Of a stretch of DNA of 64,000 bases, positions 956 through 46,223 are shown piece after piece (within the stretch, counting starts at the first letter, position 1; the number at the start of each line of letters is the position of its first letter). Under the pieces are notes generated by a model. It did no database searches and had not been told where the DNA came from. It saw only the letters and a program-made list of their open reading frames with translations. The DNA comes from Citrifermentans bremense (GTDB lineage Bacteria; Desulfobacterota; Desulfuromonadia; Geobacterales; Geobacteraceae): positions 3,450,001-3,514,000 of the forward strand of contig NZ_AP023213.1 of the NCBI RefSeq assembly GCF_014218275.1. The letters are read 5' to 3'. Position numbers and translations under genes: made by a program.

Positions 956-971
956 AAGTACTTTTTTACCA
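956..971 (-). promoter_or_regulatory. Operator-like site upstream of bamB (TGGTA-N6-TACTT)
   Basis: Read on the minus strand this is TGGTAAAAAAGTACTT, the same 16-bp layout found upstream of bamA, bamQ and three regulator genes. It sits in the bamA-bamB gap, about 70 bp before the bamB start, so bamB probably has a promoter separate from bamA. I see no strong -35/-10 pair here. Confidence 0.55.
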
Positions 972-1026
972 TTTTGAAGCGTGCCGCGGAGAGCTCGCGC
1001 ACCGCCGCGGCACATCTTGATCCGCC

Positions 1027-2172
1027 TTACCTCTGCGCTCCCGGCATCAGGCTTTCCACGAGCTCCTCGGTCCACGGGGTCCCGACGGCGAGTCCCTGGC
1101 GCAGCTTCACGAATTCGATCTCGCGGCCGGTCTCCTTGGTCCCCTCGTTGAAGGCCCTGAAGCCGGTGCGCGCCTCGTTCATCATGTTGAGCGCGAGCCA
1201 CGCCCTGGAGTTCTCCTTGTTGGCGTTCCAGGCGTTCAACTTCGGCTTCCTCAGTTCTTCCAGGCTCTTGGTCATGCACTCGGGGAAGGTGTCGATCAGC
1301 TTGGCGCAGAGCTCCTCCACCTTCTGGTCCAGCATGGAGAGGTCGATCTCCCCTTCCTTGATCAGCGCCAGACCTTCCTTGAACTGGGTCCCGGTCCTGA
1401 ACTCGCCGTGGATGACGCGGCCGTACTCGTCGATGAACTTGTCGGTGACGACGGTGGGGTTCGGGACGAACTTGCCGTCGATCTTGAGCGCCGGAACCAC
1501 GTCGGCGATGATCCCCAGACGCGCCGCCTTGTGGGCGGAGAACGGCTCGCAAAGCGTGCCGGAGACCATGGCCTGCTCGCAGCCGATCATGACCGGGAGA
1601 AAATCGGTGGCGCCGCCGATGGCCGCGGAGCCGTGCTTGGGGCCGGCCTGGCCGAAGTTGGCAAGATCGTGCGCGACGGAGAAGTCGCAGGCCATGCCGA
1701 TCTCCTGACCGCCACCGATCCTCATCCCGTTGACCCTGCAGACGACCGGCTTGTCGCACCCAAGGATGGCGGAAACCATGTCGTTGAAGAGCCTCATGTA
1801 CTGGCGGTACTCCTGCGGGTTGCCCGCGTAGTACTCGGCGTACTCCTTGGTATTGCCGCCGGTGCAAAATGCCTTCTCCCCCACGCCGGTAAAGACCACG
1901 GCGCTTACCTCGCGGTCGACGGAAGCGCGGCGGAAGGCCAGGATGGTCGCCTTCACCATGTCGGTGGTATAGGAGTTGAACTGCTTGGGGTTGTTGAAGA
2001 TGATCCAGGCGTTGTACAGCCCCTGCACCCGGCTTCCGTCCTTTCTCTTCGCGGGACGCTTCTCGTACTTCACCATCCCGTCGCACAGGCTCTCCACCTC
2101 GCGGTCGATCAGGTTGTGATCGATCAGATGGGACGGTGCGGTTCTCTTGATGATCTCGTCGGTAGTTGCCAC
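1027..2172 (-). CDS. bamA: 6-oxocyclohex-1-ene-1-carbonyl-CoA hydrolase BamA
   Basis: This ring-opening hydrolase of the benzoyl-CoA pathway adds water to 6-oxocyclohexene-carbonyl-CoA and cleaves the ring, giving 3-hydroxypimelyl-CoA. The 381-residue protein is a crotonase-fold enzyme longer than ordinary enoyl-CoA hydratases, as expected for BamA. It shows the family stretches NAWIIFNNPKQFNSYTT, GEKAFCTGGNTKEYAEYY (oxyanion-hole region), NGMRIGGGQEIGMACDFS and FGQAGPKHGSAAIGGATDF. The ATG at 2172 follows an AAGGGGGAAG ribosome site. A sigma-70 promoter at 2234-2262 with an operator over its -10 lies directly upstream. bamB follows in the same direction. Confidence 0.95.
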   Translation of the reverse strand: MATTDEIIKRTAPSHLIDHNLIDREVESLCDGMVKYEKRPAKRKDGSRVQGLYNAWIIFNNPKQFNSYTTDMVKATILAFRRASVDREVSAVVFTGVGEKAFCTGGNTKEYAEYYAGNPQEYRQYMRLFNDMVSAILGCDKPVVCRVNGMRIGGGQEIGMACDFSVAHDLANFGQAGPKHGSAAIGGATDFLPVMIGCEQAMVSGTLCEPFSAHKAARLGIIADVVPALKIDGKFVPNPTVVTDKFIDEYGRVIHGEFRTGTQFKEGLALIKEGEIDLSMLDQKVEELCAKLIDTFPECMTKSLEELRKPKLNAWNANKENSRAWLALNMMNEARTGFRAFNEGTKETGREIEFVKLRQGLAVGTPWTEELVESLMPGAQR

Positions 2173-2233
2173 GGCTTCCCCCTTAACTTCTTTGTATGGT
2201 TTGAGTTGCGCGTCAGATTTCTATTTGAGTAAA

Positions 2234-2262
2234 TAAGTACTTTAATACCACTTTTCTGTCAA
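2234..2262 (-). promoter_or_regulatory. bamA promoter with overlapping operator
   Basis: On the minus strand a perfect -35 TTGACA (2262-2257) is followed after 17 bp by TACTTA (2239-2234). The 16-bp site TGGTATTAAAGTACTT (2250-2235) covers the spacer end and most of the -10, the position expected for a repressor site. The bamQ promoter has the same arrangement and shares the TACTTATTTAC string. Confidence 0.7.
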
Positions 2263-2278
2263 GAAAAAAACTGCTGTT

Positions 2279-2737
2279 TTAGGAAAATACAAAATCGTCC
2301 AGCTGCAGGTAACCAGCGTGGTCCATCACGACGCCGGGGGCGCCCTTCTCGAAGGCACGGCGCAGCTCCGGCGGGATCTCCACCTTTTGCAGGGTTTTGG
2401 CGTCGACCAGCACCCGGACCGTCTCGGCCGAGGCGATCACCGCGTCTTTTCCGGCGCTCCTGAAGTCGGTGACGATGGTGAGCGAACTGTTTCCCACCTC
2501 CTTCACCGCCACCGATATCTCCAGGACCTCGTCGAAGCGCGCCGGGGAGCGCCACTGCACGTTCTGGCTCACCAGCATGAAATCGAGGTCTCCCTGCAAC
2601 AGGTCCCACCCCGCGAGCGTCCTCAGGAATTCCGTGGTAGCCAAACCCGCGTAGTTGGCGTAGTTCGCGTTGTAGACCACCTTCTGCGCGTCGCACTCGT
2701 AGTAGCGGACCCTGAGATAGTATCGAAACTGTTCCAT
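2279..2737 (-). CDS. Acyl-CoA thioesterase, 4-hydroxybenzoyl-CoA thioesterase (hotdog) family
   Basis: This is a 152-residue single hotdog-fold protein. Near its start is YECDAQKVVYNANYANY, the D-x-x-x-V-V-Y helix motif of the YbgC/4-hydroxybenzoyl-CoA thioesterase family, whose Asp is catalytic. It probably hydrolyses an acyl- or aroyl-CoA in the cytoplasm; beside bamA it could release trapped CoA from dead-end aromatic CoA esters, which is inference. I chose ATG 2737 because it follows a GGAAAAGG-type ribosome site; the longer frame to 2848 runs into the promoter region. A possible -35 TTGACC lies at 2848-2843, and a half operator TGGTA at 2821-2825 overlaps the likely -10. Confidence 0.8.
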   Translation of the reverse strand: MEQFRYYLRVRYYECDAQKVVYNANYANYAGLATTEFLRTLAGWDLLQGDLDFMLVSQNVQWRSPARFDEVLEISVAVKEVGNSSLTIVTDFRSAGKDAVIASAETVRVLVDAKTLQKVEIPPELRRAFEKGAPGVVMDHAGYLQLDDFVFS

Positions 2738-2906
2738 GACCACCCCGCCTTTTCCTCGCCCCCGGCTCAACCGGCAGCCGCCTCGACATTTATCAGAACA
2801 ACGTTTCAATTGCGTTAAATTGGTATCACTATGCCGAATTAGGGTCAAGAAAAAATAACATATGCAAGATATTTCCCAGGTAACGCTTGCGAACTTCCTG
2901 CCTTCA

Positions 2907-2922
2907 TGGTACTAAATTACCA
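2907..2922. promoter_or_regulatory. Perfect operator palindrome TGGTA-N6-TACCA between thioesterase and GNAT/Rrf2 genes
   Basis: TGGTACTAAATTACCA is a perfect inverted repeat of TGGTA/TACCA with a 6-bp spacer. It lies in the divergent gap between the leftward thioesterase gene and the rightward GNAT-Rrf2 pair, about 106 bp before the GNAT start. It belongs to the motif family described for bamA and bamQ and may mark autoregulation of the Rrf2 gene. Confidence 0.6.
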
Positions 2923-3027
2923 ATTTCCACTCCCCCAAGAGCGGGGACCAATCCCAACAGCGATCAGCCGCCTCCCCGGCCGGGGGGAGCGCCTTGCGGC
3001 GCACGGCAATCGCGAGCGAGTCGAGAA

Positions 3028-3468
3028 ATGAGCAAGATAACCATCAGGGACGCCATTCCAAGCGACTTGGAAGCCATCATCGCTTTGGACCGGACGCCCA
3101 ACGAGGACAAGACGGGGTACTGGCAGAGCATCTTCCAGCATTACGTGGTGGCTGGACGTCCGGACCGGGTCTTCCTTGTCGCGCAAGAAGGGAAGTCGCC
3201 GGTTGGCTTCATCATCGGCGAGGTCCGTGCCTGGGAGTTCGGCTCCCCCCCCTGCGGCTGGGTGTTCGCCCTCAGGGTGTCCCATACCACCCGCGAAGGC
3301 GGGATCGGCACCAGGATGTTCACCGAGATCTGCCAGCGCCTGAAAAAGGCCGGCGTGGACACGGTGCGCACCATGGTGGACATCGACAACAAGCTCACCC
3401 TCTCATTCTTCCGCGGCATGGGGATGCGGACCGGGCGCTACGTCGAGCTGGAAAAACGAATCGACTGA
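3028..3468 (+). CDS. GNAT-family N-acetyltransferase
   Basis: This 146-residue protein spans one GNAT domain: an N-terminal ITIRDAIPSDLEAIIALD strand-helix, a central LRVSHTTREGGIGTRMF region that is the acetyl-CoA pyrophosphate-binding loop (R/Q-x-x-G-x-G/A type), and a C-terminal SFFRGMGMRTGRYVELEK strand. Substrate is unknown. I chose ATG 3028 because the domain starts there; the frame open from 2887 has a low-complexity N-terminus and crosses the operator. The Rrf2 gene follows after 35 bp in the same direction, so the two are probably cotranscribed and the acetyltransferase may be linked to regulation of aromatic metabolism. Confidence 0.8.
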   Translation: MSKITIRDAIPSDLEAIIALDRTPNEDKTGYWQSIFQHYVVAGRPDRVFLVAQEGKSPVGFIIGEVRAWEFGSPPCGWVFALRVSHTTREGGIGTRMFTEICQRLKKAGVDTVRTMVDIDNKLTLSFFRGMGMRTGRYVELEKRID

Positions 3469-3503
3469 CGGCGCCCCGGCGCCTGCATTGGAGCGAGACG
3501 ATC

Positions 3504-3968
3504 ATGAAGCTAAACAAGGCAAGCCTTTTCGCGCTTATCTCAGTCCTGGAGCTGGCCAGCGACCCTGAGCGGCAGCTTTCCACCTCCGACATCGCCGACA
3601 AGTACGGCATCTCTTCGCACCACCTGGCCAAGGTGATGCGCAACCTCGTGCACCAGGGTGTGGTCCAGGCGATGCGCGGCGTAGGGGGCGGCTACCGCTT
3701 CGCCGGCAACGTGAACCGCACCACCTTGCTGGACATCATCCAGCTCTTCGAGACCCTGGAGAGCGAACTCGACCTCCCCCACTGGAACAAGGCGGCGGAG
3801 CCGGTGGTCTCGGAGCTGCACAGCGTGACCAACGAGATCGACACGGTCACCCGCGCCATCCTCGACACCATAACCCTGGCCACGGTGCTGAAGAACACGC
3901 GGGCGACCGGCGAGGGAGCGGCGGAGGCAAGCCCGCCGGGCAGGGCCTCCAAAACGGCTGCAGGTTGA
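3504..3968 (+). CDS. Rrf2-family transcriptional regulator (candidate BgeR)
   Basis: The 154-residue protein has an N-terminal winged helix typical of Rrf2 proteins: MKLNKASLFALISVLELA, then TSDIADKYGISSHHLAKVMRNL, and the wing VQAMRGVGGGYRFAGN. It contains no cysteine at all, so it cannot bind the Fe-S cluster that IscR or NsrR use; sensing must be of another kind. An Rrf2-family repressor of bamA named BgeR has been described in Geobacter bemidjiensis; family and position near bamA make this a good candidate orthologue, but I cannot align them here. The start follows a GGAG ribosome site. The C-terminal 25 residues are low-complexity Ala/Gly/Pro. Confidence 0.8.
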   Translation: MKLNKASLFALISVLELASDPERQLSTSDIADKYGISSHHLAKVMRNLVHQGVVQAMRGVGGGYRFAGNVNRTTLLDIIQLFETLESELDLPHWNKAAEPVVSELHSVTNEIDTVTRAILDTITLATVLKNTRATGEGAAEASPPGRASKTAAG

Positions 3969-5598: not shown

Positions 5599-5667
5599 GG
5601 GTGCTTCCTCCTGTTTGTGGTTGTTGTGTGCGGCCTGGCCCGCAGGCGGCTTCTGGAGGAGGTTAAT

Positions 5668-6165: not shown

Positions 6166-7944
6166 TCAGTGGTCGGACGCGTCGTCGTGATGCTTCTTCT
6201 GCAGCTTCTTGTACAGCCATTGCCTGGAGATGCCGAGGAGGTCTGCGGCCTGCAGCTTGTTGCCGTTGCAAAACTGGATCGCGGCCTCCACCAGCAGCTT
6301 CTCGAACTCCTCGACGATGGCGGGAAGCGGCTTGCTCCCAAGCCTTGCGCGCAGATAGGGGCCGATATCGTGCGGGATGCCGGCGTTGCCGTCCCCGAGC
6401 ATCCTGGAGAGCTGCTCCGGTAGGTGGTCCTTGAGGATGAGAGGACCGGTCACCACGTTGAAGGCGCTCTCTATCACGTTGCGCAGTTCCCTCACGTTTC
6501 CCGGCCAGTCGTAGTGCATGACGACGTCGCGGGCCTCCAGGCTCAGTCCCTGGACCTCCAGCCCGAACTCCTCGTTGAACTGCTGGATGAAATTTATGCT
6601 GAGGGCGCGGATGTCCTCCTTGCGCTCCCTGAGCGCGGGGATGCAAAGCGTCACCACCTTGAGGCGATAGTAGAGGTCCTGCCGGAACTTACCCTCCCGC
6701 ACCAGGGCCTCCAGATTGCTGTTGGTCGCGGCGACCACCCTCACGTCGACCGTTTTCGGCGCGTTGCTCCCCAGCGGCGTCAGCTCCCTCTCCTGCAGGA
6801 CCCGCAGCATCTTTGCCTGCATGTAAAGCGGCATGTCGCCGATTTCGTCCAGGAAGATGGTCCCCAGGTGCGCCTGCTCGAATTTCCCCAGCTGCCCCCC
6901 TTTCCTGGCCCCGGTGAAGGCCCCCTCGGCGTAGCCGAACAGTTCGGATTCCAGCAGATGCTCGGGGATCGCGGCGCAGTTGACCTTGACGAACTGGGCG
7001 TAGCGGCGGTTGCTGGCGGCATGGATAGCGTGGGCGAAAAGCTCCTTCCCGGTCCCGCTCTCCCCCAGAAGAAGGATGTTCGAGTTCTTGGAGGCCACCC
7101 GCAGCAAAGACTCCTTCAGGTCCTGCATCTTCTTGCTCTGCCCGACGATGCTGTTCACGTCGTAGCGCGACATCGATTCCTTACGCGCCACGCTCCCGGC
7201 CGCCGCGCGCGTCTCGGAAGCGCCCTGCAGCCGGTTCGCGATCAGGGTGATCTCGCGGATGTCCTTGAACAGGATCTTGCCGACCCCCCCGATGACCTGG
7301 CCATCCTTGACGATAGGGTAGAGCGAGGCGTAGACCTGCTTGCCGTTCAGGTAATGGGTGATGCCGATTTGGGGGGTGGCGCTTTCCATCACCGCGGGCA
7401 GTTTAGAGGACTGGGAGTTGGGGTAGGCTTCGCTGACATGCTTGCCGATGATGGCGTGGGGGGTGGTGTCGAGGATGTCAGCGAAGGCCTGGTTCACCAT
7501 GACCACCACCCCTTCCCGGTCCACGATTACGATGCCGTCGTAGTTGAGATCGAGGGAGGTGCTCCCCGACTGCAAGAGGGCCTTCAAATCGATGGAGGGA
7601 TCGGAGAGCTGTTCCGGGAGGAGCCGCAGGACGGACAAAATACCCCCCACCAGCTGGTCGGACTCCATGGATGGGAGGAAGTCGCAGGCCAGGCGCCTCT
7701 TGCCCACCTGCAGCGCCTGGTTGTTGAAGACGGTGCCGCTTTTCATCAGGGTGCTGAGCTCGGAGAGATCCGCCACCTCGTCGAGCCTGCGCCCCAGGAG
7801 GCTCTCCACGGGCATGCCGATGAGATCGGCGGCGGCCGCGTCGAGGTAGGAGATGCCGAGGTCGGCGTCCAGCCTCACGATTCCGGAAGCGTTGCCGCAG
7901 CCGGTTCTCCCATCGAGCTCCGTTATTTCAGCGACCTGCACCAT
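6166..7944 (-). CDS. Sigma-54-dependent transcriptional activator with two PAS domains
   Basis: The 592-residue enhancer-binding protein has two PAS domains (about residues 18-110 and 127-230), an AAA+ sigma-54 interaction domain with Walker A LLLGESGTGK (291-300) and the sigma-54-contacting loop GAFTGA (341-346), and a C-terminal Fis-type helix-turn-helix (about 550-585, NGNKLQAADLLGISRQWLYKK). There is no receiver domain, so it probably responds to a small ligand or redox state bound by PAS rather than to a kinase. ATG 7944 has an AAGAAGG ribosome site; a TTG 39 bp upstream is a less likely start. The adjacent sigma-54 promoter at 5668-5684 is its most obvious target. Confidence 0.9.
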   Translation of the reverse strand: MVQVAEITELDGRTGCGNASGIVRLDADLGISYLDAAAADLIGMPVESLLGRRLDEVADLSELSTLMKSGTVFNNQALQVGKRRLACDFLPSMESDQLVGGILSVLRLLPEQLSDPSIDLKALLQSGSTSLDLNYDGIVIVDREGVVVMVNQAFADILDTTPHAIIGKHVSEAYPNSQSSKLPAVMESATPQIGITHYLNGKQVYASLYPIVKDGQVIGGVGKILFKDIREITLIANRLQGASETRAAAGSVARKESMSRYDVNSIVGQSKKMQDLKESLLRVASKNSNILLLGESGTGKELFAHAIHAASNRRYAQFVKVNCAAIPEHLLESELFGYAEGAFTGARKGGQLGKFEQAHLGTIFLDEIGDMPLYMQAKMLRVLQERELTPLGSNAPKTVDVRVVAATNSNLEALVREGKFRQDLYYRLKVVTLCIPALRERKEDIRALSINFIQQFNEEFGLEVQGLSLEARDVVMHYDWPGNVRELRNVIESAFNVVTGPLILKDHLPEQLSRMLGDGNAGIPHDIGPYLRARLGSKPLPAIVEEFEKLLVEAAIQFCNGNKLQAADLLGISRQWLYKKLQKKHHDDASDH

Positions 7945-8083
7945 AAGCGCCTTCTTTCTCTGTTTTGCTGTGACTACTGCCAAAGACCTAGTCTCCCGTC
8001 GCCTTGCGGTAGGTGCAGTGGTCCCCCGTGATGGGAGGAGGGAGACTGGAAACGGTCTGGTTTTTAGGCCATTAAGAGCTTTT

Positions 8084-8091: not shown

Positions 8092-8133
8092 TGAAATCTG
8101 CTATTCCCGTCAACACATCCATCACAGCCGGGG

Positions 8134-8914: not shown

Positions 8915-9892
8915 TTATCCCCCTACCCCTGACATGACGAACGCGGCGGCGCCGGATTTCTCGTCGAACCTGTGCCTGCCCGGCTTGTCGAGGACGATGC
9001 TGCGGATACCGTCGCGCAGCAGGGCGTCGTCGCCCGAGGCAAGAAGCGGTCTCAGATCCACCCCCTTCCCCGCCAAGAGGCACCCCTTGGCCGTGCCGGA
9101 GGCGGTCACCCTGAGCCGGTTGCAGGCGTCGCAGAAGTGGCCGGTCATCGGGGTGATGACCCCGAGCGAGCCGACTGCGCCCTGAACCCTGAAGTTCTTG
9201 GCCGGTCCGGAGCGCTCGTTTCGCTCCAGCTTCTCGATCAGGAAACGCTCAGCGATCCGCTCCAGCACCTCGCTTCCCGGAATGCAGAGCGAACGCCAGT
9301 CGGTCGTCTGGCAGGTGGGCATGTACTCGATGAACCTGACAGCGTAGGGACGCTCCAGGGTGAGCCGCACGAAATCGAGGATCTCGTGGTCGTTCACCCC
9401 GCGCATCAGCACCACGTTTATCTTGTGCGGCGGAAAGCCCGCCCGCTCGGCCGCCTCAATCCCCGCAAGCGCCGCTTTTAGATCGCCACCCCGAGTGATA
9501 CGGGCGAAGGTCGCCGGGTCGAGGGAGTCGAGGCTGATGTTCAGCCGCTGCACCCCGGCGTCCTTCAGTCCCCGGGCCATCCCCTTGAGGAGCGTGCCGT
9601 TGGTGGTCAGCACCAGTTCCTCGAGCCCCGGTATCCGCGCCAGGCGCTCCAGGAACGGGATGATCCCCTTTCTCACCAGGGGCTCGCCGCCGGTCACCCG
9701 GATCTTCTCGATCCCTGCGGCGACCGCTTGCGTCGCGACCCGCAGAAGCTCCTCGTAGGAAAGCACCCGGTCCTGCGGCAGGAGCTCCACCCCCTTAGCC
9801 GGCATGCAGTAGCTGCAGCGGAGGTTGCACCGGTCGGTCACGGAAAGCCGGAGGTAGTTGATACGTCTGCCATAAGCGTCGATGAGCGACAC
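8915..9892 (-). CDS. moaA: GTP 3',8-cyclase MoaA
   Basis: MoaA is the radical SAM enzyme for the first step of molybdopterin (Mo/W cofactor) biosynthesis, converting GTP to 3',8-cyclo-7,8-dihydro-GTP. The 325-residue protein has the N-terminal SAM cluster cysteines C22, C26 and C29 (CNLRCSYC), GGEPLVRKG, and the C-terminal second cluster region CDACNRLRVTASGTAKGCL. It is 13 bp upstream of fdhD and 28 bp downstream of the amidohydrolase gene, inside a benzoyl-CoA operon. A dedicated copy here fits the need for pterin cofactor in BamB. Confidence 0.95.
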   Translation of the reverse strand: MSLIDAYGRRINYLRLSVTDRCNLRCSYCMPAKGVELLPQDRVLSYEELLRVATQAVAAGIEKIRVTGGEPLVRKGIIPFLERLARIPGLEELVLTTNGTLLKGMARGLKDAGVQRLNISLDSLDPATFARITRGGDLKAALAGIEAAERAGFPPHKINVVLMRGVNDHEILDFVRLTLERPYAVRFIEYMPTCQTTDWRSLCIPGSEVLERIAERFLIEKLERNERSGPAKNFRVQGAVGSLGVITPMTGHFCDACNRLRVTASGTAKGCLLAGKGVDLRPLLASGDDALLRDGIRSIVLDKPGRHRFDEKSGAAAFVMSGVGG

Positions 9893-13652: not shown

Positions 13653-14726
13653 CTAGGAAAGGCCCGGCACGAGGATGGCGCGCCTGGTGAGCTGGTGAGC
13701 ATGTGCGGAGGCAAACACCTGGTTGATGTTGTCCAGGGGATGCTTCTCGATGAACGGCGTCAGGGCGACCTTGCCGTCGAGCACGAGGTCGAGGGCCGCC
13801 GGGTAGAGCTCGGTCAGGCAGCCCCAGTTCCCCAGGGCCCTGGCGTGGAACGCCATCAGGTTGGAAAGGCGCAGCTCGATCTTGTCCATGGTGAAGCCGA
13901 CTACGGAGAGGGTGGCACCGTAGGTGAGGAGGCCAAAGGCGGTGTCCTGGCCGGGGGCGCTGCCGGAGCATTCGAAGATCTTCCAGCAGGTCTGCTTGAG
14001 CCCTTTCGCTTTAACGAACTCGTTGATCGCCTTCTTCAGCTCTTTGCCGGCGATCTCGCGGGAATTGAGGGTGAGGGCCGCGCCGTGCTTGGCCACGTTT
14101 TCCAGCTTCACCGGGTCCACGTCGATGGCGATGACGGTGGCGCCCAGGGCGTTGGCCACCTGCACCGCGTAGCCGCCTACACCGCCCACGCCGATGACGA
14201 TGGCGACGTCGCCGGGCTGGACCTCGGCCTGCACCGCAGCCTGGTACGGGGTGGTAACCGCATCGGCCACGACGGAGATGTCGGCAAGCTCAAGACCAGC
14301 CGCGGCAAGGCGCTTCTCGTCCACCGGGCAGAGCGTCTTCGCCGGGACGACGATATGGGAGGCGAAGCCGCCGTGGATGTCGTTGCCGGGCATCTGCTGC
14401 GCGCGGCAGATGGTGCCGTGGCTGGAGAGGCAGAGGTCGCACTCGCCGCAGGGGATGACCGCCGGAATCAGCACCGCCTTGCCAACCCACTGGCCGGCCC
14501 CCTCGCCCGCTGAGATCACGCGGCCGCTGATTTCATGCCCCAGCGTGAGCGGAGCGGGGTGGTTGAAACGGACACCGCTGTAATAGAAACCAAGGTCGGT
14601 GTGGCAGACGCCACAACCCGCGACCTCGACGACGACTTCTCCCGCGCCCGGCGTAGGGGCGAACTCACCCTTTTGCATCGGCTCACCGACGGCGGTCATG
14701 GACCAGCGATACGCTGACTTGGACAT
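13653..14726 (-). CDS. bamQ: 6-hydroxycyclohex-1-ene-1-carbonyl-CoA dehydrogenase BamQ
   Basis: BamQ is the NAD-dependent zinc-type dehydrogenase that oxidises the BamR product to 6-oxocyclohex-1-ene-carbonyl-CoA, the BamA substrate. The 357-residue medium-chain dehydrogenase has [10 protein letters not shown] (catalytic zinc Cys), LTLGHEISG (zinc His), structural-zinc cysteines in [16 protein letters not shown], and the Rossmann [16 protein letters not shown] 14726 has a GGAGGAAG ribosome site; the frame open to 14870 runs through the promoter. It heads the operon that runs to fdhD, with an operator-covered sigma-70 promoter at 14785-14821. Confidence 0.93.
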
Positions 14727-14784: not shown

Positions 14785-14821
14785 TGGTAAATAAGTACCA
14801 CAATGCTTATTTTGCTGTCAA
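14785..14821 (-). promoter_or_regulatory. bamQ promoter with perfect operator palindrome
   Basis: On the minus strand TTGACA (14821-14816) precedes a -10 near TACTTA (14797-14792, 18-bp spacing). The site TGGTACTTATTTACCA (14800-14785) is a perfect TGGTA/TACCA inverted repeat covering the -10. Compare bamA at 2234-2262, which shares TTGACAG and TACTTATTTAC. Confidence 0.7.
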
Positions 14822-38379: not shown

Positions 38380-39525
38380 CTACTCCGGCGCGGGAGGAGG
38401 ACCGCTCGGGGCAAGCGGCGCCCTCAGGAAATAGAAGTTGTGGATCAACGTCAAAAGGGCCACGAAGTGGAGCGTGAACAGCACGGAGACCACGTTCAGG
38501 TCGAAGGGGAGCCCAGCCGCCTGCGCCTTGGCGAGGACGGGTGGCATGATCAACCGCATCAGCGCGATCCAGCCGAAGGCGAGGACCAGCTCGGTCACGA
38601 AGTTGCAGATGCCGCGCTTGGGCTGCTTGTACTTCGCGAAGGGGTAGTAGCCGAAGATGGCGCCGTGGAAGTTCTGCATGCCGATGATGGAGCCCCCGAC
38701 AGCCGCGAAGGAGAAGGTCGGCGACATGAACTTGAGGCTCACGGTCCAGCAGAGCCAGCCGAGCAGGATGCAGACTGCGGTGTTGGCGATCTCGCCGATA
38801 GGCTGCGGGAGCTTGTAGAAGGGCCACTGCTGGAAGCTGAGCACGTTGGAGAAAGCCTGGATCCAGACGATGATCCAGACCAGCAAGCCGAAGAACCACT
38901 CCGCCTGGAAGGGGCCCCCGGGATCGTAGGGGGCGCCGGCGAATGGGGTGCCGGAGAGGTTCACCAGCTGCCACAAAAGCGCGGTGATGCCGACGATGAC
39001 CGCCGCCCCCCCGATGCCGCGCAGAGCCGGCGAGCATTTCTGGTTCAGCGGCCACCCGTTCCAGGTGAAGGCATACCAGAGGGTCACGGTGAAGAGGATG
39101 ATGCCCCACCAGAACCCGACCGGAAAGAGCGGGAAGCGGGGGTAAAGGTATGTCGTGGCCAGGGGGCCCGCGACGGCGATCGCGGCTAACAGCGCCGTGC
39201 TCGACAGCCCCGGCTTCCAGACGCCGTCGGCCGGTTTCCAGTTGCCGAGGGGGGGCGCGAAGGGCCAGCCACCCGAAACGAGCGGGCAGAACACCACGAT
39301 GCTGAAGAGCACGTAGAAGGATGCAGGGAGCAGCACGGTGAAGAGCAGCCCCGTCGGGATGAAGTACATCATCGCCCAGCTGAGCCCCATGAACAGCGCC
39401 AGGTAGGCCGCGAGCTGTCCGAAGCTCGGAGCCGCCGCGGCCCCGGCGGTGCTTGCCGCATCGATGCACGCAGTCTCCATTGTTTCCATGGTCACGCCGT
39501 CTTGCCCATCACCCGGTACACTCAT
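38380..39525 (-). CDS. Polytopic membrane protein of unknown function heading the PCMH/bc run
   Basis: The 381-residue protein has about ten hydrophobic segments, many Trp and aromatic residues at their ends, and a proline-rich C-terminus. Short features include WGIILFTVTLWYAFTWNGWP and MQNFHGAIFGYYPFAKYKQP. I do not recognise the family; no heme, Fe-S or transporter signature is clear. Being first in the run ending in PCMH, it could be the membrane anchor of the complex or a carrier for the substrate. AAGGAGGAC precedes ATG 39525. A candidate sigma-54 promoter lies at 39607-39622. Confidence 0.75.
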   Translation of the reverse strand: MSVPGDGQDGVTMETMETACIDAASTAGAAAAPSFGQLAAYLALFMGLSWAMMYFIPTGLLFTVLLPASFYVLFSIVVFCPLVSGGWPFAPPLGNWKPADGVWKPGLSSTALLAAIAVAGPLATTYLYPRFPLFPVGFWWGIILFTVTLWYAFTWNGWPLNQKCSPALRGIGGAAVIVGITALLWQLVNLSGTPFAGAPYDPGGPFQAEWFFGLLVWIIVWIQAFSNVLSFQQWPFYKLPQPIGEIANTAVCILLGWLCWTVSLKFMSPTFSFAAVGGSIIGMQNFHGAIFGYYPFAKYKQPKRGICNFVTELVLAFGWIALMRLIMPPVLAKAQAAGLPFDLNVVSVLFTLHFVALLTLIHNFYFLRAPLAPSGPPPAPE

Positions 39526-39606
39526 GGCTCGTCCTCCTTCCGATATGGTGCAAACAAATGTTTTACTGAAAATGAGACCTGCAGCGCTTGACAAAGCGGG
39601 ATTGGC

Positions 39607-39622: not shown

Positions 39623-39884
39623 ACTCAAATAGGCTTCAGTACCGACTAGTTACACCACCAGCCCCTGCCCGCCCCATGCAGTCCGTTCTCTCGGACCTGC
39701 AGCGGGAGTTTTCTCCCAGGCACATATCACCTATTAGCATGCAGAGTGCCAAAACAATGTTATCGGTTGTGTGCGAGGTTTTAGCTTCCGGGAATACCCT
39801 GAGATATCTAGGGATTGCGGGATCGGAGGGAGAGCATATTCTGCCGCATGCGATTTATCCGCGGCCGGAAGGGATTGAGGACCG

Positions 39885-40210: not shown

Positions 40211-40226
40211 TGGTATTGGAGTACCA
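40211..40226. promoter_or_regulatory. Perfect operator palindrome upstream of the XylR-like regulator
   Basis: TGGTATTGGAGTACCA is a perfect TGGTA/TACCA repeat with 6-bp spacer, the third such site in the window. It lies about 145 bp before the start at 40356 and links control of the p-cresol regulator with that of bamA and bamQ. Confidence 0.6.
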
Positions 40227-40244
40227 TTTTAACTATTCCCTCTT

Positions 40245-40289
40245 CCCGTCCACGGAGGGCGCTTCCAGCTCTCCCCCTCCGTGGACGGG
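40245..40289 (+). other. Strong hairpin in the leader of the XylR-like gene
   Basis: CCCGTCCACGGAGG (40245-40258) pairs perfectly with CCTCCGTGGACGGG (40276-40289), a 14-bp stem. No U run follows, so it is not a simple terminator. It lies between the operator and the start codon and could slow translation or transcription. Confidence 0.5.
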
Positions 40290-40355
40290 AGGGGGAACCG
40301 TAATACGCTGCAAGGTTATTCGATGAAAATGAGGGCTCTGGAGGGGCGGGCAAAG

Positions 40356-42104
40356 ATGAGCAAATCGCAGAAAAAGAAAAACATCTCAGCGGAGGCGACA
40401 AGGAACAAGGTACGCTCCCTGGTCCATTTTTGCGCCGACACCGGCAACATCTGGCTGCACGAGCACCGCATGCTGCTGATCCACGCGGAGGCGCAAGGGG
40501 CGATGCGCAGGGAGCTGATCGACACCCTCGGCATGGACCGGGCGCGGGCCCTGCTCATGCGCATGGGATTCGCTTCCGGCGCCCAGGACGCGGAGGTCTT
40601 TAAAAGACAGCTCGAGGGGGTTCCGGACCAGGAGGCGTTCCTCGTCGGGACGCAGCTGCACACCCTGGAGGGGATCGCCAAGGTGACCACACTTGAGCTG
40701 GACGTGGACCGTGCAGCAGGCAAGTTCTCCGGCCATTTCATGTGGGAGAACTCCTGGGAGGGGAATTGGCACAAGAAGCACTACGGGGTTCATACCGCCC
40801 CGACCTGCTGGAGCCAGCTGGGGTATGCCTGCGGCTACACCTCGACGCTGATGGGGCGCCCGATCCTCTACAAGGAGGTGGAGTGCGTCGGCAAGGGTGA
40901 CAGACATTGCCGCACCGTCGGCAAACCGCTTGAGGAGTGGGAGGACGCCGCCGAGTTCAGGAGGATATTCCATCCCGACCCCATAGTCGACGAACTGATA
41001 GAACTGCAGACCCAGGTGGTGGAGCTGCGCTCGGCGATCAACGAGAAGGAAAAGCTGCCGGCGGACGTGGTCGGCAAGTCCCAGGCCTTCACAACTGCCT
41101 TCGGGCTGCTCAAGCAGGCAGCGGCAAGCCAGATCACGGTCCTTTTGCAGGGGGAGACGGGGGTGGGCAAGGAGGTGTTCGCGCGCACCCTGCATGAGCG
41201 CAGCAGCAGGAGCAAGGCTTCGTTCATCGCCGTAAACTGCGCCGCCATCCCCCACGACCTGGTGGAATCGGAGCTCTTCGGCGTGGAGAAGGGGGCCTAC
41301 ACAGGCGCCCTGACCTCGCGCCCGGGACGCTTCGAGCGGGCCGACGGCGGCACCTTGTTCCTGGACGAGATCGGCGATCTGCCTCTGCCGGCGCAGGCAA
41401 AACTTCTGCGCGTGCTGCAGGAAGGAGAAATCGAGCGGCTGGGGGACCACAAGGTCCGCAAGGTGGACGTAAGACTGGTGGCGGCGACCAACATCGACCT
41501 GAAACAGCTGGTGCAGGAGGGGAAATTCCGCTCGGACCTCTACTACCGCCTGAACGCGTTCCTGGTCAAGATTCCCTCTTTAAGGGAGCGCAAGGATGAC
41601 ATCCTGCTCCTTGCGGAGCGCTTCGTGGAGAAATACGCGGCCATACAGGGAAAGAGGCTGCGTGGCTTCACCGACAAGGCGAAGCGGGCCCTTTTGGCTT
41701 ACCACTGGCCTGGAAACATCAGGGAGTTGCAGAACATGGTGGAGCGGGGGGTGATACTGGCCCAGCCCGGCTCGCGTATCGAGCTGGACCAGATGTTCTC
41801 CTCCACTGCGGAGGAGGGAAGCGTCGAATACGGCGTCAGCAGCACAGGTAGCCTCGACATCAACCGCGACTCGACCGGAAAGGAGCTCTGCGAGGCGGTC
41901 CTCGACGGGGGGCTGACGCTGGAGCAGGTGGAAAGCATGCTGATCCGGGCCGCGGTGGAGAAGGAGGGGGGGAACCTTGCCGCTTCGGCAAGGGCCCTGG
42001 GGCTCACCCGCCCGCAGCTTGCCTACCGCCTGGGGAGCCTGCAGCAGAAGGGGGACAGCTCTTTCCGCCTCGAGGACCCATTCGCGAACCCCGACCTCTA
42101 CTGA
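40356..42104 (+). CDS. XylR/DmpR-like sigma-54 activator with aromatic-sensing domain
   Basis: The 582-residue regulator has an N-terminal XylR-N/V4R sensory region (residues 20-200) with cysteines 151, 159, 177 and 185 in the V4R part (ECVGKGDRHC), a short linker, an AAA+ domain with Walker A GETGVGKE (266-273) and the loop GAYTGA (313-318, Tyr variant of GAFTGA), and a Fis-type helix-turn-helix (NLAASARALGLTRPQLAYRLG). Such proteins bind phenols or alkylbenzenes directly. It is divergent from the PCMH run, its likely target. GGAGG precedes ATG 40356; ATG 40323 in frame is an alternative. Confidence 0.9.
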   Translation: MSKSQKKKNISAEATRNKVRSLVHFCADTGNIWLHEHRMLLIHAEAQGAMRRELIDTLGMDRARALLMRMGFASGAQDAEVFKRQLEGVPDQEAFLVGTQLHTLEGIAKVTTLELDVDRAAGKFSGHFMWENSWEGNWHKKHYGVHTAPTCWSQLGYACGYTSTLMGRPILYKEVECVGKGDRHCRTVGKPLEEWEDAAEFRRIFHPDPIVDELIELQTQVVELRSAINEKEKLPADVVGKSQAFTTAFGLLKQAAASQITVLLQGETGVGKEVFARTLHERSSRSKASFIAVNCAAIPHDLVESELFGVEKGAYTGALTSRPGRFERADGGTLFLDEIGDLPLPAQAKLLRVLQEGEIERLGDHKVRKVDVRLVAATNIDLKQLVQEGKFRSDLYYRLNAFLVKIPSLRERKDDILLLAERFVEKYAAIQGKRLRGFTDKAKRALLAYHWPGNIRELQNMVERGVILAQPGSRIELDQMFSSTAEEGSVEYGVSSTGSLDINRDSTGKELCEAVLDGGLTLEQVESMLIRAAVEKEGGNLAASARALGLTRPQLAYRLGSLQQKGDSSFRLEDPFANPDLY

Positions 42105-42107
42105 GAT

Positions 42108-43229
42108 CTAGCCGTAGATGCCCCTTCTCATCCTGTCCTGCATCATCTCGTGCATCCGCTCGTCGACGTTGGCGGCCGTGATCCCGGATTCCCTGCAGAA
42201 CTTGCGCACAGGCTCGACCTGGTCCGGGCGCTTCAGATCGTCCAGGCGCAGCAGGCGACCCGTCCTCTTCCCCACCTGGAACAACATCCGCTGATCCGGC
42301 TCCAGCTCCAGGAATCTCCTCGGGACAGCGACCAGGCGCTCCTTGCCTGCCGGGAAAGCGCCGTTTATCTCCTGAAACAGGTTGAAGCCATGGTCGCTTC
42401 TGACCGCGCTGGTGATGCCGTCGAGCGCGGCGAGGAAGGCGCCGATCTCCCGGGCCAGCACCTGGTCCGACGCGAAGCGGAATTTTTGGTCCCCGCTTCC
42501 GGGGAAGAGCTCCACCCCTTCCCGGATGTGCAGCGTCCTGAAGCGGATGAAGTCGGGATTTATCCTGTTGATGACCTCGGCGCTCTCCTCGGCATGCTCA
42601 AGGGAGAGCTCCGTCCCGCCGAGCCCGGCAAGGAAATACTCGGAGAGTTCGATCCCCGCCCCCTTCACCTTGAGCCCGGCTGCCACCTGCCCCTCCTTGT
42701 CGACCCCCTTTTGCACCAGCTTGAGCAGTGCTTCAGACCCGGTCTCCATCCCTACGTGGATACGGTTCAGTCCCGCCGCGGCCAGCTCCCTGAGGGCGGC
42801 GTCCGGGGTACGGGCGAGGCTCTCGGAGCGGGCATAGCAGGTGATCCGCTTCACCCCCGGGAACCTCTCCTTAAGATGACGGAGAATCCGCACCAGGTTT
42901 TCGGGACGGTAGGTGAGGCAGTCGGCATCCTGCAGGAACACGGAGTGCATCCCGCCGCAATACCAGCTCCAGGCCGCCAGCACCCCCTGGTGGTCCCCCG
43001 GCAGGGTCTGCGGCGGCACCCCCTGGGCGATCTGCTTGATCAAATGGTGAACGGTGTCGATGTCGCGGATGACTTCCTCCACCGGCCGGATGGAGAACCT
43101 CTGTTTCTTGTAAAGGGAGCAGAAGGTGCAGCGGTTCCAGGGGCAGTTCCGGTTCACGCGGATCAACAGGCTTTCGGCTTCGCTGGGTGGGCGGATCGGA
43201 CCCTGTTCGAATCCGGCGTATGGTGGCAT
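42108..43229 (-). CDS. Radical SAM protein
   Basis: The 373-residue protein has the [4Fe-4S]-SAM motif CPWNRCTFC near residue 29, HVGMETGSEALLKLVQKGVD in the barrel and SEYFLAGLGG, the pattern of Elp3/MiaB-like uncharacterised radical SAM enzymes. No second cluster or B12 domain is seen. Function is unknown. It is convergent with the XylR-like gene, with 3 bp between the stops, and lies 22 bp downstream of the VWA gene, so it may be cotranscribed with the VWA/MoxR pair. GGAGG precedes the start. Confidence 0.85.
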   Translation of the reverse strand: MPPYAGFEQGPIRPPSEAESLLIRVNRNCPWNRCTFCSLYKKQRFSIRPVEEVIRDIDTVHHLIKQIAQGVPPQTLPGDHQGVLAAWSWYCGGMHSVFLQDADCLTYRPENLVRILRHLKERFPGVKRITCYARSESLARTPDAALRELAAAGLNRIHVGMETGSEALLKLVQKGVDKEGQVAAGLKVKGAGIELSEYFLAGLGGTELSLEHAEESAEVINRINPDFIRFRTLHIREGVELFPGSGDQKFRFASDQVLAREIGAFLAALDGITSAVRSDHGFNLFQEINGAFPAGKERLVAVPRRFLELEPDQRMLFQVGKRTGRLLRLDDLKRPDQVEPVRKFCRESGITAANVDERMHEMMQDRMRRGIYG

Positions 43230-43251
43230 GAGAACCTCCTGAAGTTGGCGC

Positions 43252-44430
43252 TTACCGGTTCAGCAAATCGACCGCCTGCCCCACCCCGTCCAGCGTCAAG
43301 GGGAACATGCGGTCCCCCATCAGCTGCCGGATCAGGCGCACCGACCGGGTGACTTCCCACTCCCGCTGCGGCGCGGGGTTCAGCCAGACGGCCCGCGGGT
43401 ACTGGGCCAAAAGCCGCAAGAGCCAGGTCGAGCCGGGCTCGGCGTTGTCGTGCTCCACGCTCCCGCCGGGCCACTCGATCTCGTACGGCCCCATGGTCGC
43501 GTCCCCGACCATGATCAGCTTCCAGTTCGGGCCGAACTGGTGGATCAGATCGAAGGTGGCGAGGTGATGCTGATGGCGGCGCCGGTTGTCGCGCCATATC
43601 TTTTCGTAAACGCAGTTGTGGAAGTAAAAGTGCTCCAGGTGCTTGAACTCGCTGCGGGTGGCGCAAAAGAGCTGCTCGCAAAGTTCCACGTGGGGGTCCA
43701 TCGACCCTCCCACGTCCAGAAGCAGCAGCACCTTAACCTTGTTGTGCCGCTCCGGGACCATGCGCAGATCCAGGTAGCCGCCGTTGCTGGCGGTGGCCCG
43801 GATGGTACCGGGGAGGTCCAGCTCCTCCCTCGCCCCCTCGCGGGCGAAGTCGCGCACCCGCCGCAGGGCCATCTTCATGTTGCGGGTCCCAAGCTCCACC
43901 GAGCCGTCGAGGTTGCGGAATTCCCGCTTGTCCCACACCTTGACCGCCCGCCGGTGGCGCGACTCAGCCTGGCCGATCCGGATCCCCTCGGGGTTGTAGC
44001 CGTAGGCGCCGAAGGGAGAGGTGCCGCCGGTCCCGATCCACTTGCTCCCTCCCTGGTGCCGCTCCTTCTGCTCGGCCAGCCGCTGCCTCAGGGTCTCCAG
44101 GAGCTTGTCGAGTCCCCCCAGCGCCTGGATCTGCCGCTTTTCCTCCTCGGAGAGGAACTTCTCCTTGATCTTGCGCAGCCACTCCTCCGGGATCTGCGCG
44201 AACAGTTCGCCGCCCCCAAGGGTCGCACCCTCGAAGAACTCCATGAAGACGCGATCGAACTTGTCGTAGTTGGCCTCGCTCTTCACCAGGACCAGGCGCG
44301 CCAGATAGTAGAACTCCTCGGCGCTGCCAAAGGCGAGCCTTCTCTTGAGAGCCTCCAGAAGGGTCAGGAACTCGTTCAGCGTCACCGGCACGCCGGCGCG
44401 CTTTAGCCCCAGGAAGAAGTCGATCAGCAT
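43252..44430 (-). CDS. VWA-domain protein (CoxE-like) paired with a MoxR ATPase
   Basis: The 392-residue protein has a charged N-terminal half and a C-terminal von Willebrand A domain with the metal site LLLLDVGGSMDPH (D-x-G-x-S, a variant of D-x-S-x-S). With the adjacent AAA+ gene it forms a MoxR/VWA pair, which in other systems remodels or inserts metal into enzymes (CoxD/CoxE for CO dehydrogenase). The target here is unknown; the molybdenum or tungsten enzymes of this window are candidates. Confidence 0.85.
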   Translation of the reverse strand: MLIDFFLGLKRAGVPVTLNEFLTLLEALKRRLAFGSAEEFYYLARLVLVKSEANYDKFDRVFMEFFEGATLGGGELFAQIPEEWLRKIKEKFLSEEEKRQIQALGGLDKLLETLRQRLAEQKERHQGGSKWIGTGGTSPFGAYGYNPEGIRIGQAESRHRRAVKVWDKREFRNLDGSVELGTRNMKMALRRVRDFAREGAREELDLPGTIRATASNGGYLDLRMVPERHNKVKVLLLLDVGGSMDPHVELCEQLFCATRSEFKHLEHFYFHNCVYEKIWRDNRRRHQHHLATFDLIHQFGPNWKLIMVGDATMGPYEIEWPGGSVEHDNAEPGSTWLLRLLAQYPRAVWLNPAPQREWEVTRSVRLIRQLMGDRMFPLTLDGVGQAVDLLNR

Positions 44431-44434
44431 CGCC

Positions 44435-45292
44435 TCAGGCCCGAAAGCCCAAGCCGGTGTGCCGGGGCTGCCCCTGGAAAAGCTGCAGGTCCTGCTCGTT
44501 TTTCAGGAGCGCCCCGTGCAAGGGGGGAATCAGCCTCTCCTTTCCTGCAGCCTGCAGAGTCTGCGGCGCAACCCCCTCCGCGACCAGGATCTTCAGCCAG
44601 TCGAGGAGCTCCGAGGTCGAGGGCTTCTTCTTGAGCCCAGGCATCTCCCTCACCCCCAGGAACACCTCCAGGGCTTCTTTCACCAGGGCCCGGTTCAGGC
44701 CGGGGTAGTGCACCGAAACGATGCTCTCCAGGGTCTCCCGGTCCGGGAAACGGATGTAATGGAAGAAGCAGCGGCGCAAAAACGCGTCCGGGAGCTCCTT
44801 CTCGTTGTTGCTGGTGATGATGATCGCCGGGCGGTGCTTTGCCTGCACCAGCTCCCTGGTCTCGTAGACGAAGAACTCCATACGGTCCAGCTCGCGCAGC
44901 AGGTCGTTGGGAAACTCGATATCCGCCTTGTCCACCTCGTCGATGAGAAGCACCGCCTGCCGTTCCGACTCGAACGCCTCCCAGAGCTTCCCCTTGACGA
45001 TGTAGTTCCCTATCTCGTGCACCCGCGCATCGCCAAGCTGCGAGTCGCGCAGGCGCGACACCGCGTCGTACTCGTAGAGCCCCTGCTGTGCTTTGGTGCT
45101 CGACTTGATGTGCCACTGGAACAGCGGCTTGTCCAGGGCACGCGCCACCTCCTCCGCCAGCATGGTCTTGCCGGTGCCCGGCTCCCCCTTGACCAGCAGC
45201 GGACGCCCCAGCACCATGGCCGAGTTGACCGCCAGCTTCAGATCCTCGGTGGCGATGTAGGATTCAGTTCCGTTGAATTTCATGTCTTTCAT
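44435..45292 (-). CDS. MoxR-family AAA+ ATPase
   Basis: The 285-residue ATPase has Walker A VKGEPGTGKTMLAEE (about residues 34-48), Walker B VLLIDEVDKAD and sensor-1 IIITSNNEKELPDAF. It is 4 bp upstream of the VWA gene and is surely its partner. ATG 45292 is used; an ATG 9 bp downstream has better spacing from AGGGG and may be the real start. Confidence 0.9.
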   Translation of the reverse strand: MKDMKFNGTESYIATEDLKLAVNSAMVLGRPLLVKGEPGTGKTMLAEEVARALDKPLFQWHIKSSTKAQQGLYEYDAVSRLRDSQLGDARVHEIGNYIVKGKLWEAFESERQAVLLIDEVDKADIEFPNDLLRELDRMEFFVYETRELVQAKHRPAIIITSNNEKELPDAFLRRCFFHYIRFPDRETLESIVSVHYPGLNRALVKEALEVFLGVREMPGLKKKPSTSELLDWLKILVAEGVAPQTLQAAGKERLIPPLHGALLKNEQDLQLFQGQPRHTGLGFRA

Positions 45293-45355
45293 CCCCTGTA
45301 ATTTCTTTACCCTATCTGCTGCAACCAGCTTCGGCGCGCCCCCCGCGCTTCAGCT

Positions 45356-46129
45356 TTAATAGCCAAGCGTGGCGGAAATGTCCGCTGCTCCCTGTTTCAA
45401 AAGCGGCGCAAGCTCCTGCTCTATCCGCTCGGGATGAAAACGCTGTGAAGGCCCCAGCATGCTCACCGCGCCGATAACGCGCGAGGTGTAGTCGCGGATG
45501 GGGGCTCCGACGCTGTTCACGCTAAGGTTCAACTCCTCGAACTCCACAGCGTACCCCTGCTGGGCGATCTCCCGCAGTTGGTCCATCCAGCTCTCCGCAT
45601 CGGTGATGGTGTGCGGGGTGTGCCTCTCGAATCTGTTGATCGAGGTGTACTTGGCGATCGCCTCCTCGCCGAAATGCGCCATGAACGACTTCCCGGGAGC
45701 GGTGCAGTAGGCAGGGAGCTGCACGCCGAGGGTGGGCATGACCCGCAGGTTGTGGTCGCACTCCACCGAGTCGAGATTAATCACGCTGTAGTCGGACATG
45801 ATGGAAACGCAGGTTGTCTCGTTGCACTGGCGCACCAGCCGCTCCATCACCTTCCGGGCCCCACCGAGCCCCCGCTGCCAGAGGGCCCTCTGGGCCAGCT
45901 CCACCGTCATGAACCCCAGCTGGTACCGCTCCGTGACCGGATCCCTGGATACGTAGTTGCGCAGCTGCAGCGTGGCCAGCAACCGGAATATGTTGTTCTT
46001 AGGCAGCTTGAGGCGCCGGCTCAGCTCCGTCAGACCGATCTCGTGGTCATCCAGGAGGAACTGCTCCAAAACGTCCAGCGCGCGGCTGACGCTTCGGTTA
46101 CAGGTCCTCTTTTCTCTAGCTTTTTTCAT
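45356..46129 (-). CDS. IclR-family transcriptional regulator
   Basis: The 257-residue protein has an N-terminal helix-turn-helix (SVSRALDVLEQFLLDDHEIG, then LTELSRRLKLPKNNIFRLLATL) and the IclR effector domain (PAYCTAPGKSFMAHF, YAVEFEELNLSVNSVGAPIRD, GAVSMLGPSQRF). IclR proteins commonly sense aromatic acids such as 4-hydroxybenzoate. ATG 46129 has AGAGGAA before it. Its own promoter at 46188-46223 carries the bam-type operator, so it may be the binding protein and autoregulate. Confidence 0.88.
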   Translation of the reverse strand: MKKAREKRTCNRSVSRALDVLEQFLLDDHEIGLTELSRRLKLPKNNIFRLLATLQLRNYVSRDPVTERYQLGFMTVELAQRALWQRGLGGARKVMERLVRQCNETTCVSIMSDYSVINLDSVECDHNLRVMPTLGVQLPAYCTAPGKSFMAHFGEEAIAKYTSINRFERHTPHTITDAESWMDQLREIAQQGYAVEFEELNLSVNSVGAPIRDYTSRVIGAVSMLGPSQRFHPERIEQELAPLLKQGAADISATLGY

Positions 46130-46187
46130 GACTCGGTTCCTCTGAACTGCCCTCCGGATCTGTGCAAAAAAATAGATAATGGCAATA

Positions 46188-46223
46188 AAGTACTTCAATA
46201 CCACAATAGCGCGAGAGTGTCAA
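46188..46223 (-). promoter_or_regulatory. IclR gene promoter with bam-type operator
   Basis: On the minus strand TTGACA (46223-46218) is followed after 17 bp by TATTGA (46200-46195). The site TGGTATTGAAGTACTT (46203-46188) covers the -10 and differs from the bamA site at one base. The remainder of the gap to the tRNA at 46539 has no gene. Confidence 0.65.

What the first reader, a model, noticed from the sequence alone, without database searches (positions are those of the whole stretch)
956..46203. A 16-bp operator shared by bam genes and three regulator genes
TGGTA-N6-TACCA occurs perfectly at 2907-2922, 14785-14800 and 40211-40226, and as TGGTA-N6-TACTT at 956-971, 2235-2250 and 46188-46203. 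All six lie upstream of bamB, bamA, the GNAT/Rrf2 pair, bamQ, a XylR-like gene or an IclR gene. In bamA, bamQ and IclR the site covers a -10 placed behind a perfect TTGACA. Ten fixed bases should occur about 0.06 times by chance in 64 kb. This looks like a single regulon joining benzoyl-CoA metabolism to p-cresol control.
Basis: partly seen in the sequence, partly recalled or inferred. Interest (0 to 1): 0.78.

Follow-up and report, generated by a model that had tools for sequence, protein, structure and literature searches.

The report
Benzoate-gene repressor operator, BadM type
The repeated DNA site is most likely the landing pad of a known type of benzoate-responsive repressor (BadM, made beside its partner enzyme BadL); in this Geobacter relative it marks most switches of the oxygen-free benzoate pathway and also those of two other regulator genes.

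Summary
The six sites are real, at the stated places, and far above chance. They belong to a larger, sharper set: a profile finds ten operator loci in the 4.46-Mb genome, nine in one 73-kb benzoate island and one at a distant bamB-2 operon, none elsewhere among the candidates scored. At catabolic promoters the operator is 24 bp, two 16-bp palindromes overlapping by 8 bp; the repressor's own promoter usually carries one 16-bp palindrome.

The binder is most likely the Rrf2 protein, the BadM half of a GNAT-Rrf2 (BadL-BadM) pair. A site lies upstream of this pair in 35 of 36 named relatives, from Geobacterales to Alphaproteobacteria and Terriglobia. Among 48 family genomes, profile hits at E<=0.1 occur in 15 of 17 with the Rrf2 gene and 0 of 31 without. 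The IclR gene has a site only in close relatives and looks like a target. The p-cresol enzyme block has no operator-grade site, so any p-cresol link runs through the XylR-like regulator.

The kind is known: BadM, and BgeR of G. bemidjiensis, whose paper I could not read. Possibly new: the operator architecture, its reach across phyla, and its pairing with tandem Mo/W-cofactor riboswitches at bamB-2.

The parts
948..971 (-). 24-bp operator upstream of bamB (bamB starts at 885 on the minus strand and leaves the window on the left)
1027..2172 (-). bamA, 6-oxocyclohex-1-ene-1-carbonyl-CoA hydrolase
   Evidence: TIGR03200; start codon
2227..2250 (-). 24-bp operator of bamA, TTGACA-N6-TGGTA promoter geometry
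   Evidence: counterpart at 10 of 14 bamA loci at score >=14 and at the other 4 at 10.7-13.5
2907..2922 (+). 16-bp operator of the GNAT-Rrf2 operon (autoregulatory site)
   Evidence: counterpart in 35 of 36 relatives
3028..3468 (+). GNAT acetyltransferase, BadL-like
   Evidence: Pfam PF00583; directly upstream of Rrf2 in 36 of 36 loci
3504..3968 (+). Rrf2-family repressor, BadM-like; proposed binder of all sites
   Evidence: PF02082; TIGR00738; comparative
13653..14726 (-). bamQ, 6-hydroxycyclohex-1-ene-1-carbonyl-CoA dehydrogenase
   Evidence: TIGR03201; start
14785..14808 (+). operator of bamQ, 16-bp palindrome plus third half-site (the gene it serves is on the minus strand)
40211..40226 (+). 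16-bp operator upstream of the XylR/DmpR-like gene
   Evidence: kept at the 4 closest orthologues
40281..42104 (+). XylR_N/V4R/sigma-54 activator of the aromatic-catabolism type (target)
   Evidence: longest open frame, true start may be 40323
45356..46129 (-). IclR-family regulator (target), probably first gene of an IclR-MoxR-VWA-radical SAM operon
   Evidence: start
46180..46203 (-). 24-bp operator upstream of the IclR gene
   Evidence: present at 8 of the 9 IclR homologues of at least 64% identity

Best explanation
The sites are operators of the BadM-like Rrf2 repressor encoded at 3504-3968, made together with its BadL-like GNAT partner (3028-3468). The repressor binds a TGGTA-N6-TACCA palindrome. 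At catabolic promoters a third half-site 8 bp further on makes a 24-bp double site, probably for two overlapping dimers, that sits behind the -35 and over the -10, so that binding blocks RNA polymerase. By analogy with R. palustris, an aromatic signal, possibly an acetamidobenzoate made by the GNAT, releases the repressor. That switches on bamA, bamB-I, bamQ, thiolase, acyl-CoA dehydrogenase, the succinyl-CoA-synthetase-like operon and bamB-2. The repressor limits its own operon through a simpler 16-bp site, and holds two further regulators (XylR-like and IclR) in a cascade. Shown: sites, neighbouring genes, comparative co-occurrence, operator architecture. Inferred: protein-DNA binding, repression, ligand, dimer number, cascade.
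For: Genome scan: 10 operator loci, 9 within 73 kb, 1 at bamB-2, none elsewhere at E<=10. Family scan, 48 genomes: profile hits at E<=0.1 in 15 of 17 Rrf2-positive and 0 of 31 Rrf2-negative genomes; at E<=1, 16 of 17 and 3 of 31 (Fisher p=1.2e-10 and 6.7e-9). A site 506-811 bp upstream of Rrf2 at score >=10 in 35 of 36 named loci, against 5.1% of 5142 random 900-nt stretches of the same loci. GNAT directly upstream of Rrf2 in 36 of 36. Recognition-helix and wing residues strongly conserved over the window protein and the same 36. A site is kept while its spacer changes at XylR-like (4 of 4 closest) and at IclR (8 of the 9 homologues of at least 64% identity). At bamA, 10 of 14 loci have a site of score >=14 and the other 4 a weaker but 24-bp-palindromic one at the same place. 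Third half-site: 42 of 66 representative sites have T-A/G-C exactly at position 20, at most 7 at any other offset scanned beyond the core. TTGAC starts 12-13 nt upstream in 27 and 20 nt upstream in 9 of 119 distinct sites. R. palustris BadL/BadM mechanism, with GmBadL (gmet_2096) in the same gene context: PMC6191541, passages read.
Against: No binding, expression or ligand data here. One of 36 loci (L044) has no site upstream of its pair; L018 (genome G006) has only a weak one (10.6) and no profile hit. Four bamA promoters (G012, G018, G023, G028) have only degenerate sites, 10.7-13.5. Three Rrf2-negative genomes have one weak hit each, E 0.41-0.98. The E<=0.1 line was drawn after seeing the hits. 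Only 150 of 472 first-look candidates were scored in the own genome, at most 150 per genome in the family. The profile was built from the own-genome sites, so those match by construction. In G014, 4 of 12 site groups at >=13.5 have no known target or sit beside another site. Family members are not independent, so the Fisher values overstate.
Confidence: 0.87

Rival explanations
1. The IclR protein (45356-46129) is the binder of all sites and autoregulates; Rrf2 is only one of its targets.
For: The IclR gene carries a strong 24-bp site. From recall, some IclR-family operators are TGG-A/T-rich-CCA palindromes of similar size.
Against: Of 30 IclR-family loci fetched (out of 75 matches) 8 carry a site at >=14, all at homologues of at least 76% identity; 22 carry none, the 64% homologue of G027 included. 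Of 8 family genomes with the Rrf2 gene but no IclR of at least 64% identity, 7 keep the motif at E<=0.1. The site stays with GNAT-Rrf2 in Terriglobia and Alphaproteobacteria.
Confidence: 0.06
2. Two regulators share the sites: Rrf2 at the benzoyl-CoA genes, and IclR or the XylR-like protein at a subset, so the palindrome is a joint site.
For: Three regulator genes carry the site. The own-genome GNAT-Rrf2 and XylR-like sites lack the third half-site, unlike the 7 catabolic sites.
Against: The same core is at every target. I did not search for a second motif at the subset. XylR-type activators usually work from distant sites with sigma-54 (recall).
Confidence: 0.06
3. The TGGTA-N6-TACCA sites are promoter elements or chance A/T-rich matches, not operators.
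For: Sites overlap the -10 region, and matches of this class do arise by chance: 4 further exact-class loci in the genome lie inside called genes.
Against: Expectation in the window 0.00-0.01 against 3 and 3; confinement to one pathway; company with Rrf2 across phyla.
Confidence: 0.01

Closest known systems
BadL-BadM of Rhodopseudomonas palustris (Rrf2-type repressor with aminobenzoate acetyltransferase)
   Same: Same gene pair of kinds, GNAT and Rrf2, beside benzoyl-CoA genes; the R. palustris paper names the G. metallireducens pair (gmet_2096) as sharing the context (PMC6191541, passages read).
   Different: In R. palustris BadM controls badDEFGAB, an ATP-dependent reductase operon. Here ten loci carry the site, including the bamB-I operon and two other regulators. 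I could not compare the R. palustris operator letters.
BgeR of Geobacter bemidjiensis (Ueki 2011, AEM 77:7058)
   Same: Represses benzoate degradation genes during growth with acetate, relieved by benzoate (as cited in PMC7324539, passage read). Very probably the orthologue: G014, a genome of 4,615,150 bp, which I recall as the size of strain Bem, has one such Rrf2 gene (97% identical) and sites at bamQ, GNAT-Rrf2, bamA, bamB, acyl-CoA dehydrogenase, thiolase, sucC-like and, weakly (14.7), IclR.
   Different: The paper itself is not held, so the family, locus tag and published binding site of BgeR were not checked.
BamVW two-component system of G. metallireducens
   Same: Named as a regulator of aromatic degradation genes in a Geobacter relative (passages).
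   Different: Two-component system, not an Rrf2 repressor; not examined here.
IscR, NsrR, RirA, CymR (other Rrf2 regulators)
   Same: Same superfamily (TIGR00738 above cut-off).
   Different: All scored far below their curated cut-offs. No cysteine in 32 of 37 aligned proteins, the window's included, and at most 2 in the rest.

Membership tests
Rrf2 superfamily | Rrf2 domain above curated cut-offs | tested here: met
   PF02082 81.8 bits (cut-off 30); TIGR00738 92.4 (cut-off 73.3)
BadL-BadM pair | GNAT gene directly upstream of the Rrf2 gene | tested here: met
   window; 36 of 36 relatives
BadL-BadM pair | Adjacent to benzoyl-CoA pathway genes | tested here: met
   bamA at 1027-2172 and bamB beside it; all 14 bamA-positive family genomes also have the Rrf2 gene, 0 of 31 without Rrf2 have bamA, but 3 of 17 with Rrf2 lack a bamA hit
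BadL-BadM pair | Ligand-gated repressor without Fe-S ligand cysteines | tested here: inconclusive
   No cysteine in the window protein; ligand and repression not testable here
BadL-BadM pair | BadL acetylates aminobenzoates; the product lowers BadM binding | not testable with these tools
   Shown for homologues in PMC6191541 (passages)
BgeR regulon | Protein identity with G. bemidjiensis BgeR | not tested
   Paper not held; inferred from synteny in G014
IclR operator | Site follows the IclR gene across genomes | tested here: not met
   8 of 30 fetched IclR-family loci; motif persists in 7 of 8 Rrf2-positive genomes without the orthologue
Fe-S Rrf2 regulators (IscR, NsrR, RirA) | Equivalog score and three conserved cysteines (cysteine count recalled) | tested here: not met
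   Below all equivalog cut-offs; no cysteines in the window protein

The most novel reading that the evidence does not exclude
A BadL-BadM operator code, conserved from Geobacterales to Alphaproteobacteria and Terriglobia, comes in two grades: a bare 16-bp single-dimer site on the repressor's own operon and 24-bp overlapping double-dimer sites on catabolic promoters. In Geobacterales it is stacked on tandem Mo/W-cofactor riboswitches at bamB-2, so that one operon reads both an aromatic signal and its own metal cofactor.
Probability: 0.5. Interest if true: 0.6.

Novelty: new member of a known kind. Interest (0 to 1): 0.45.

Why it matters
Few operators are defined for benzoyl-CoA pathways of strict anaerobes. 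A motif that can be read straight from genomes gives a testable regulon map, predicts which operons switch together during breakdown of aromatics in the subsurface, and lets the BadL-BadM signalling idea, tested so far in R. palustris, be tried in Geobacterales.

Tried and rejected
Reading Ueki 2011 and Hirakawa 2015 failed because neither is held. A search for BgeR with Rrf2 listed no paper holding both words. IclR as binder: rejected on co-occurrence. Direct control of p-cresol enzyme genes: no operator-grade site in their block. Sigma-54 promoter for the p-cresol side: one candidate at 39736-39751 (minus strand, one mismatch), but 2 hits were found with 2.01 expected, so it is only suggestive. 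The plasmid collection gave 5 Rrf2 relatives of at most 45% identity and was not followed. A first 24-mer alignment held a redundant short row and was remade. A Fisher test used a miscount (12 of 14); the recount is 13 of 15. No structure prediction was run.
Full report
The observation. All six sites are present exactly as stated. Mean numbers in shuffled sequence are 0.00 for the perfect palindrome and 0.01 for the TACTT form, against 3 and 3. The TACTT sites read on the minus strand, towards bamB, bamA and IclR.

The wider set. A search of the whole genome (4,458,493 bp; the window is 3450001-3514000) for TGGTA-N6-TAC[CT][AT] gives 14 distinct loci without mismatch. Ten stand in front of pathway or regulator genes. 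Four (71799, 1870035, 3408916, 3663251) lie inside called genes and end the spacer in C, which no operator read in the same direction does. A 24-column profile built from the sites gives 16 hits at E<=10, which collapse onto the same ten loci; 150 of 472 first-look candidates were scored in full. Targets: sucC-like (3423396), thiolase (3428610-3428633), acyl-CoA dehydrogenase (3439588), bamB, bamA, GNAT-Rrf2, bamQ, XylR-like, IclR and, 1.6 Mb away, the bamB-2/bamC-2 operon (1861103). BamB-2 is 66% identical to BamB over 650 residues and BamC-2 61% to BamC. The paralogues, and a ferredoxin gene beside them, are described for G. bemidjiensis (PMC2996986, passages). In the window's genome the short frame in that place resembles the first 30 residues of BamB and has no Pfam match. 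The operator stands some 600 bp before this frame.

Architecture. Ten fixed bases understate the site. Among the ten own-genome sites, chosen by positions 1-16 only, position 20 is T in 10 and position 22 is C in 9. Among 66 representative sites from all loci (some double sites counted in both readings) T-A/G-C starts at position 20 in 42, and in no more than 7 at any other offset scanned beyond the core. The 24-bp unit is two 16-bp palindromes shifted by 8 bp; 3428610-3428633 and 46180-46203 show both arms. In the 36 named loci the third half-site is present in 10 of 35 sites at the repressor's own operon and in 16 of 18 rows of other sites, which is 13 of 15 physical sites after merging double readings (Fisher p=0.0002). 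In the own genome it is present in 7 of 7 catabolic sites and 1 of 3 regulator-gene sites (counted; p=0.07). Some sites labelled autoregulatory may be the divergent bamA site, and the other sites are not all tied to a gene, so this split is provisional. At bamA, thiolase, acyl-CoA dehydrogenase and bamB-2, TTGACA stands 6 bp before the site; at IclR 14 and at bamQ 15 bp before. Over 119 distinct sites TTGAC begins 12-13 nt upstream in 27 and 20 nt upstream in 9. Both spacings place the operator over the expected -10.

Conservation at bamA. Of 14 bamA loci with their upstream DNA, 10 have a site of score >=14 within 200 nt of the start. The other four (G012, G018, G023, G028) score 10.7-13.5, with the outer half-sites changed to TCGTA and TTGTA, yet keep the 24-bp palindrome in the same place.

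Which protein binds. Thirty-six named relatives of the Rrf2 protein were fetched. All 36 have the GNAT gene directly upstream, and 35 of 36 have a site scoring at least 10 between 506 and 811 bp upstream of Rrf2; 5.1% of random 900-nt stretches do. This includes Terriglobia (L045) and alphaproteobacterial (L047, L048) loci with only 52-53% identical proteins. The exception is L044. In the 48 family genomes, 17 have the Rrf2 gene, and all 14 bamA-positive ones are among them. Profile hits at E<=0.1 occur in 15 of 17 with Rrf2 and 0 of 31 without; at E<=1, 16 of 17 and 3 of 31. The first threshold was chosen after the hits were seen. An IclR homologue of at least 64% identity is present in 9 genomes; of the 8 Rrf2-positive genomes without it, 7 keep the motif. 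The IclR promoter carries a site in 8 of 30 fetched loci, all at >=76% identity. Rrf2 therefore fits as binder and IclR as target. The helix-turn-helix and the wing are strongly conserved over all 36 proteins and the window's.

Mechanism. BadL homologues, that of G. metallireducens (gmet_2096) included, acetylate aminobenzoates. The acetamidobenzoates lower BadM binding at high concentration in vitro, and badL mutants fail to induce badDEFGAB unless badM is removed (PMC6191541, passages). BgeR represses benzoate genes in G. bemidjiensis on acetate (PMC7324539, passage). G014, whose single chromosome has the length I recall for strain Bem, carries the same Rrf2 (97%) and sites at 8 of the same targets; 4 of its 12 site groups at >=13.5 have no known target or sit beside another site. 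I therefore propose that the window's Rrf2 is the BadM/BgeR orthologue. That step is inference.

Link to p-cresol. Between 16 and 40 kb the best motif match is 11.7. The XylR-like activator carries a 16-bp site, kept upstream of the 4 closest orthologues and absent upstream of the other 16 homologous loci fetched. The IclR site probably drives IclR-MoxR-VWA-radical SAM as one operon; in G029 the MoxR homologue itself carries a site (L140). The p-cresol tie is thus a predicted cascade.

Novelty. The regulator kind and a Geobacter benzoate repressor are published. In the listings and passages I saw of searches for BgeR, Rrf2 with bamA, BadM with motif, badL with badM, and palindromic Geobacter bam promoters, none gave this operator. 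The 2011 paper is outside the library, so no claim of first description is made.

Noticed in passing
L011:9230-9351 and 9458-9578 (genome 1861230-1861351 and 1861458-1861578): Two tandem Mo/W-cofactor riboswitches (RF01055) lie between the operator and the bamB-2 operon. The same pair is in L115, L116 and L120; three copies follow an operator in L114, where I did not identify the gene behind as bamB-2. Tandem Moco RNAs in G. metallireducens are noted in PMC2408646 (passage).
   Followed up: partly
window 42108-46203: IclR, MoxR-type ATPase, CoxE-like VWA protein and a radical SAM protein run in one direction behind the operator, perhaps a maturation operon for the nearby molybdenum hydroxylase-like genes (the maturation idea is from recall).
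   Followed up: partly
window 39736-39751: Sigma-54-like element (one mismatch, number expected by chance) upstream of the p-cresol-side gene at 38380-39594, divergent from the XylR-like gene.
   Followed up: no
window 2821-2836: Weak motif-like site (2 mismatches) close to the thioesterase start, with a weak counterpart in G014 at 1665390.
   Followed up: no
L018 (genome G006), G010 and G025: GNAT-Rrf2 pair without a bamA hit at the threshold used; profile hits remain in front of a sucC-like gene (G010, L127) and in a locus with an electron-transfer gene and a thioesterase (G025, L126), so the pair may serve other CoA pathways.
   Followed up: partly
G029:C1:275372 (in L179): A motif hit (16.6) stands in front of a protein 45% identical to BamB, possibly another BamB-type target in that genome.
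   Followed up: no
window 6166-7983: A second sigma-54 activator, with PAS domains, inside the benzoate island.
   Followed up: no
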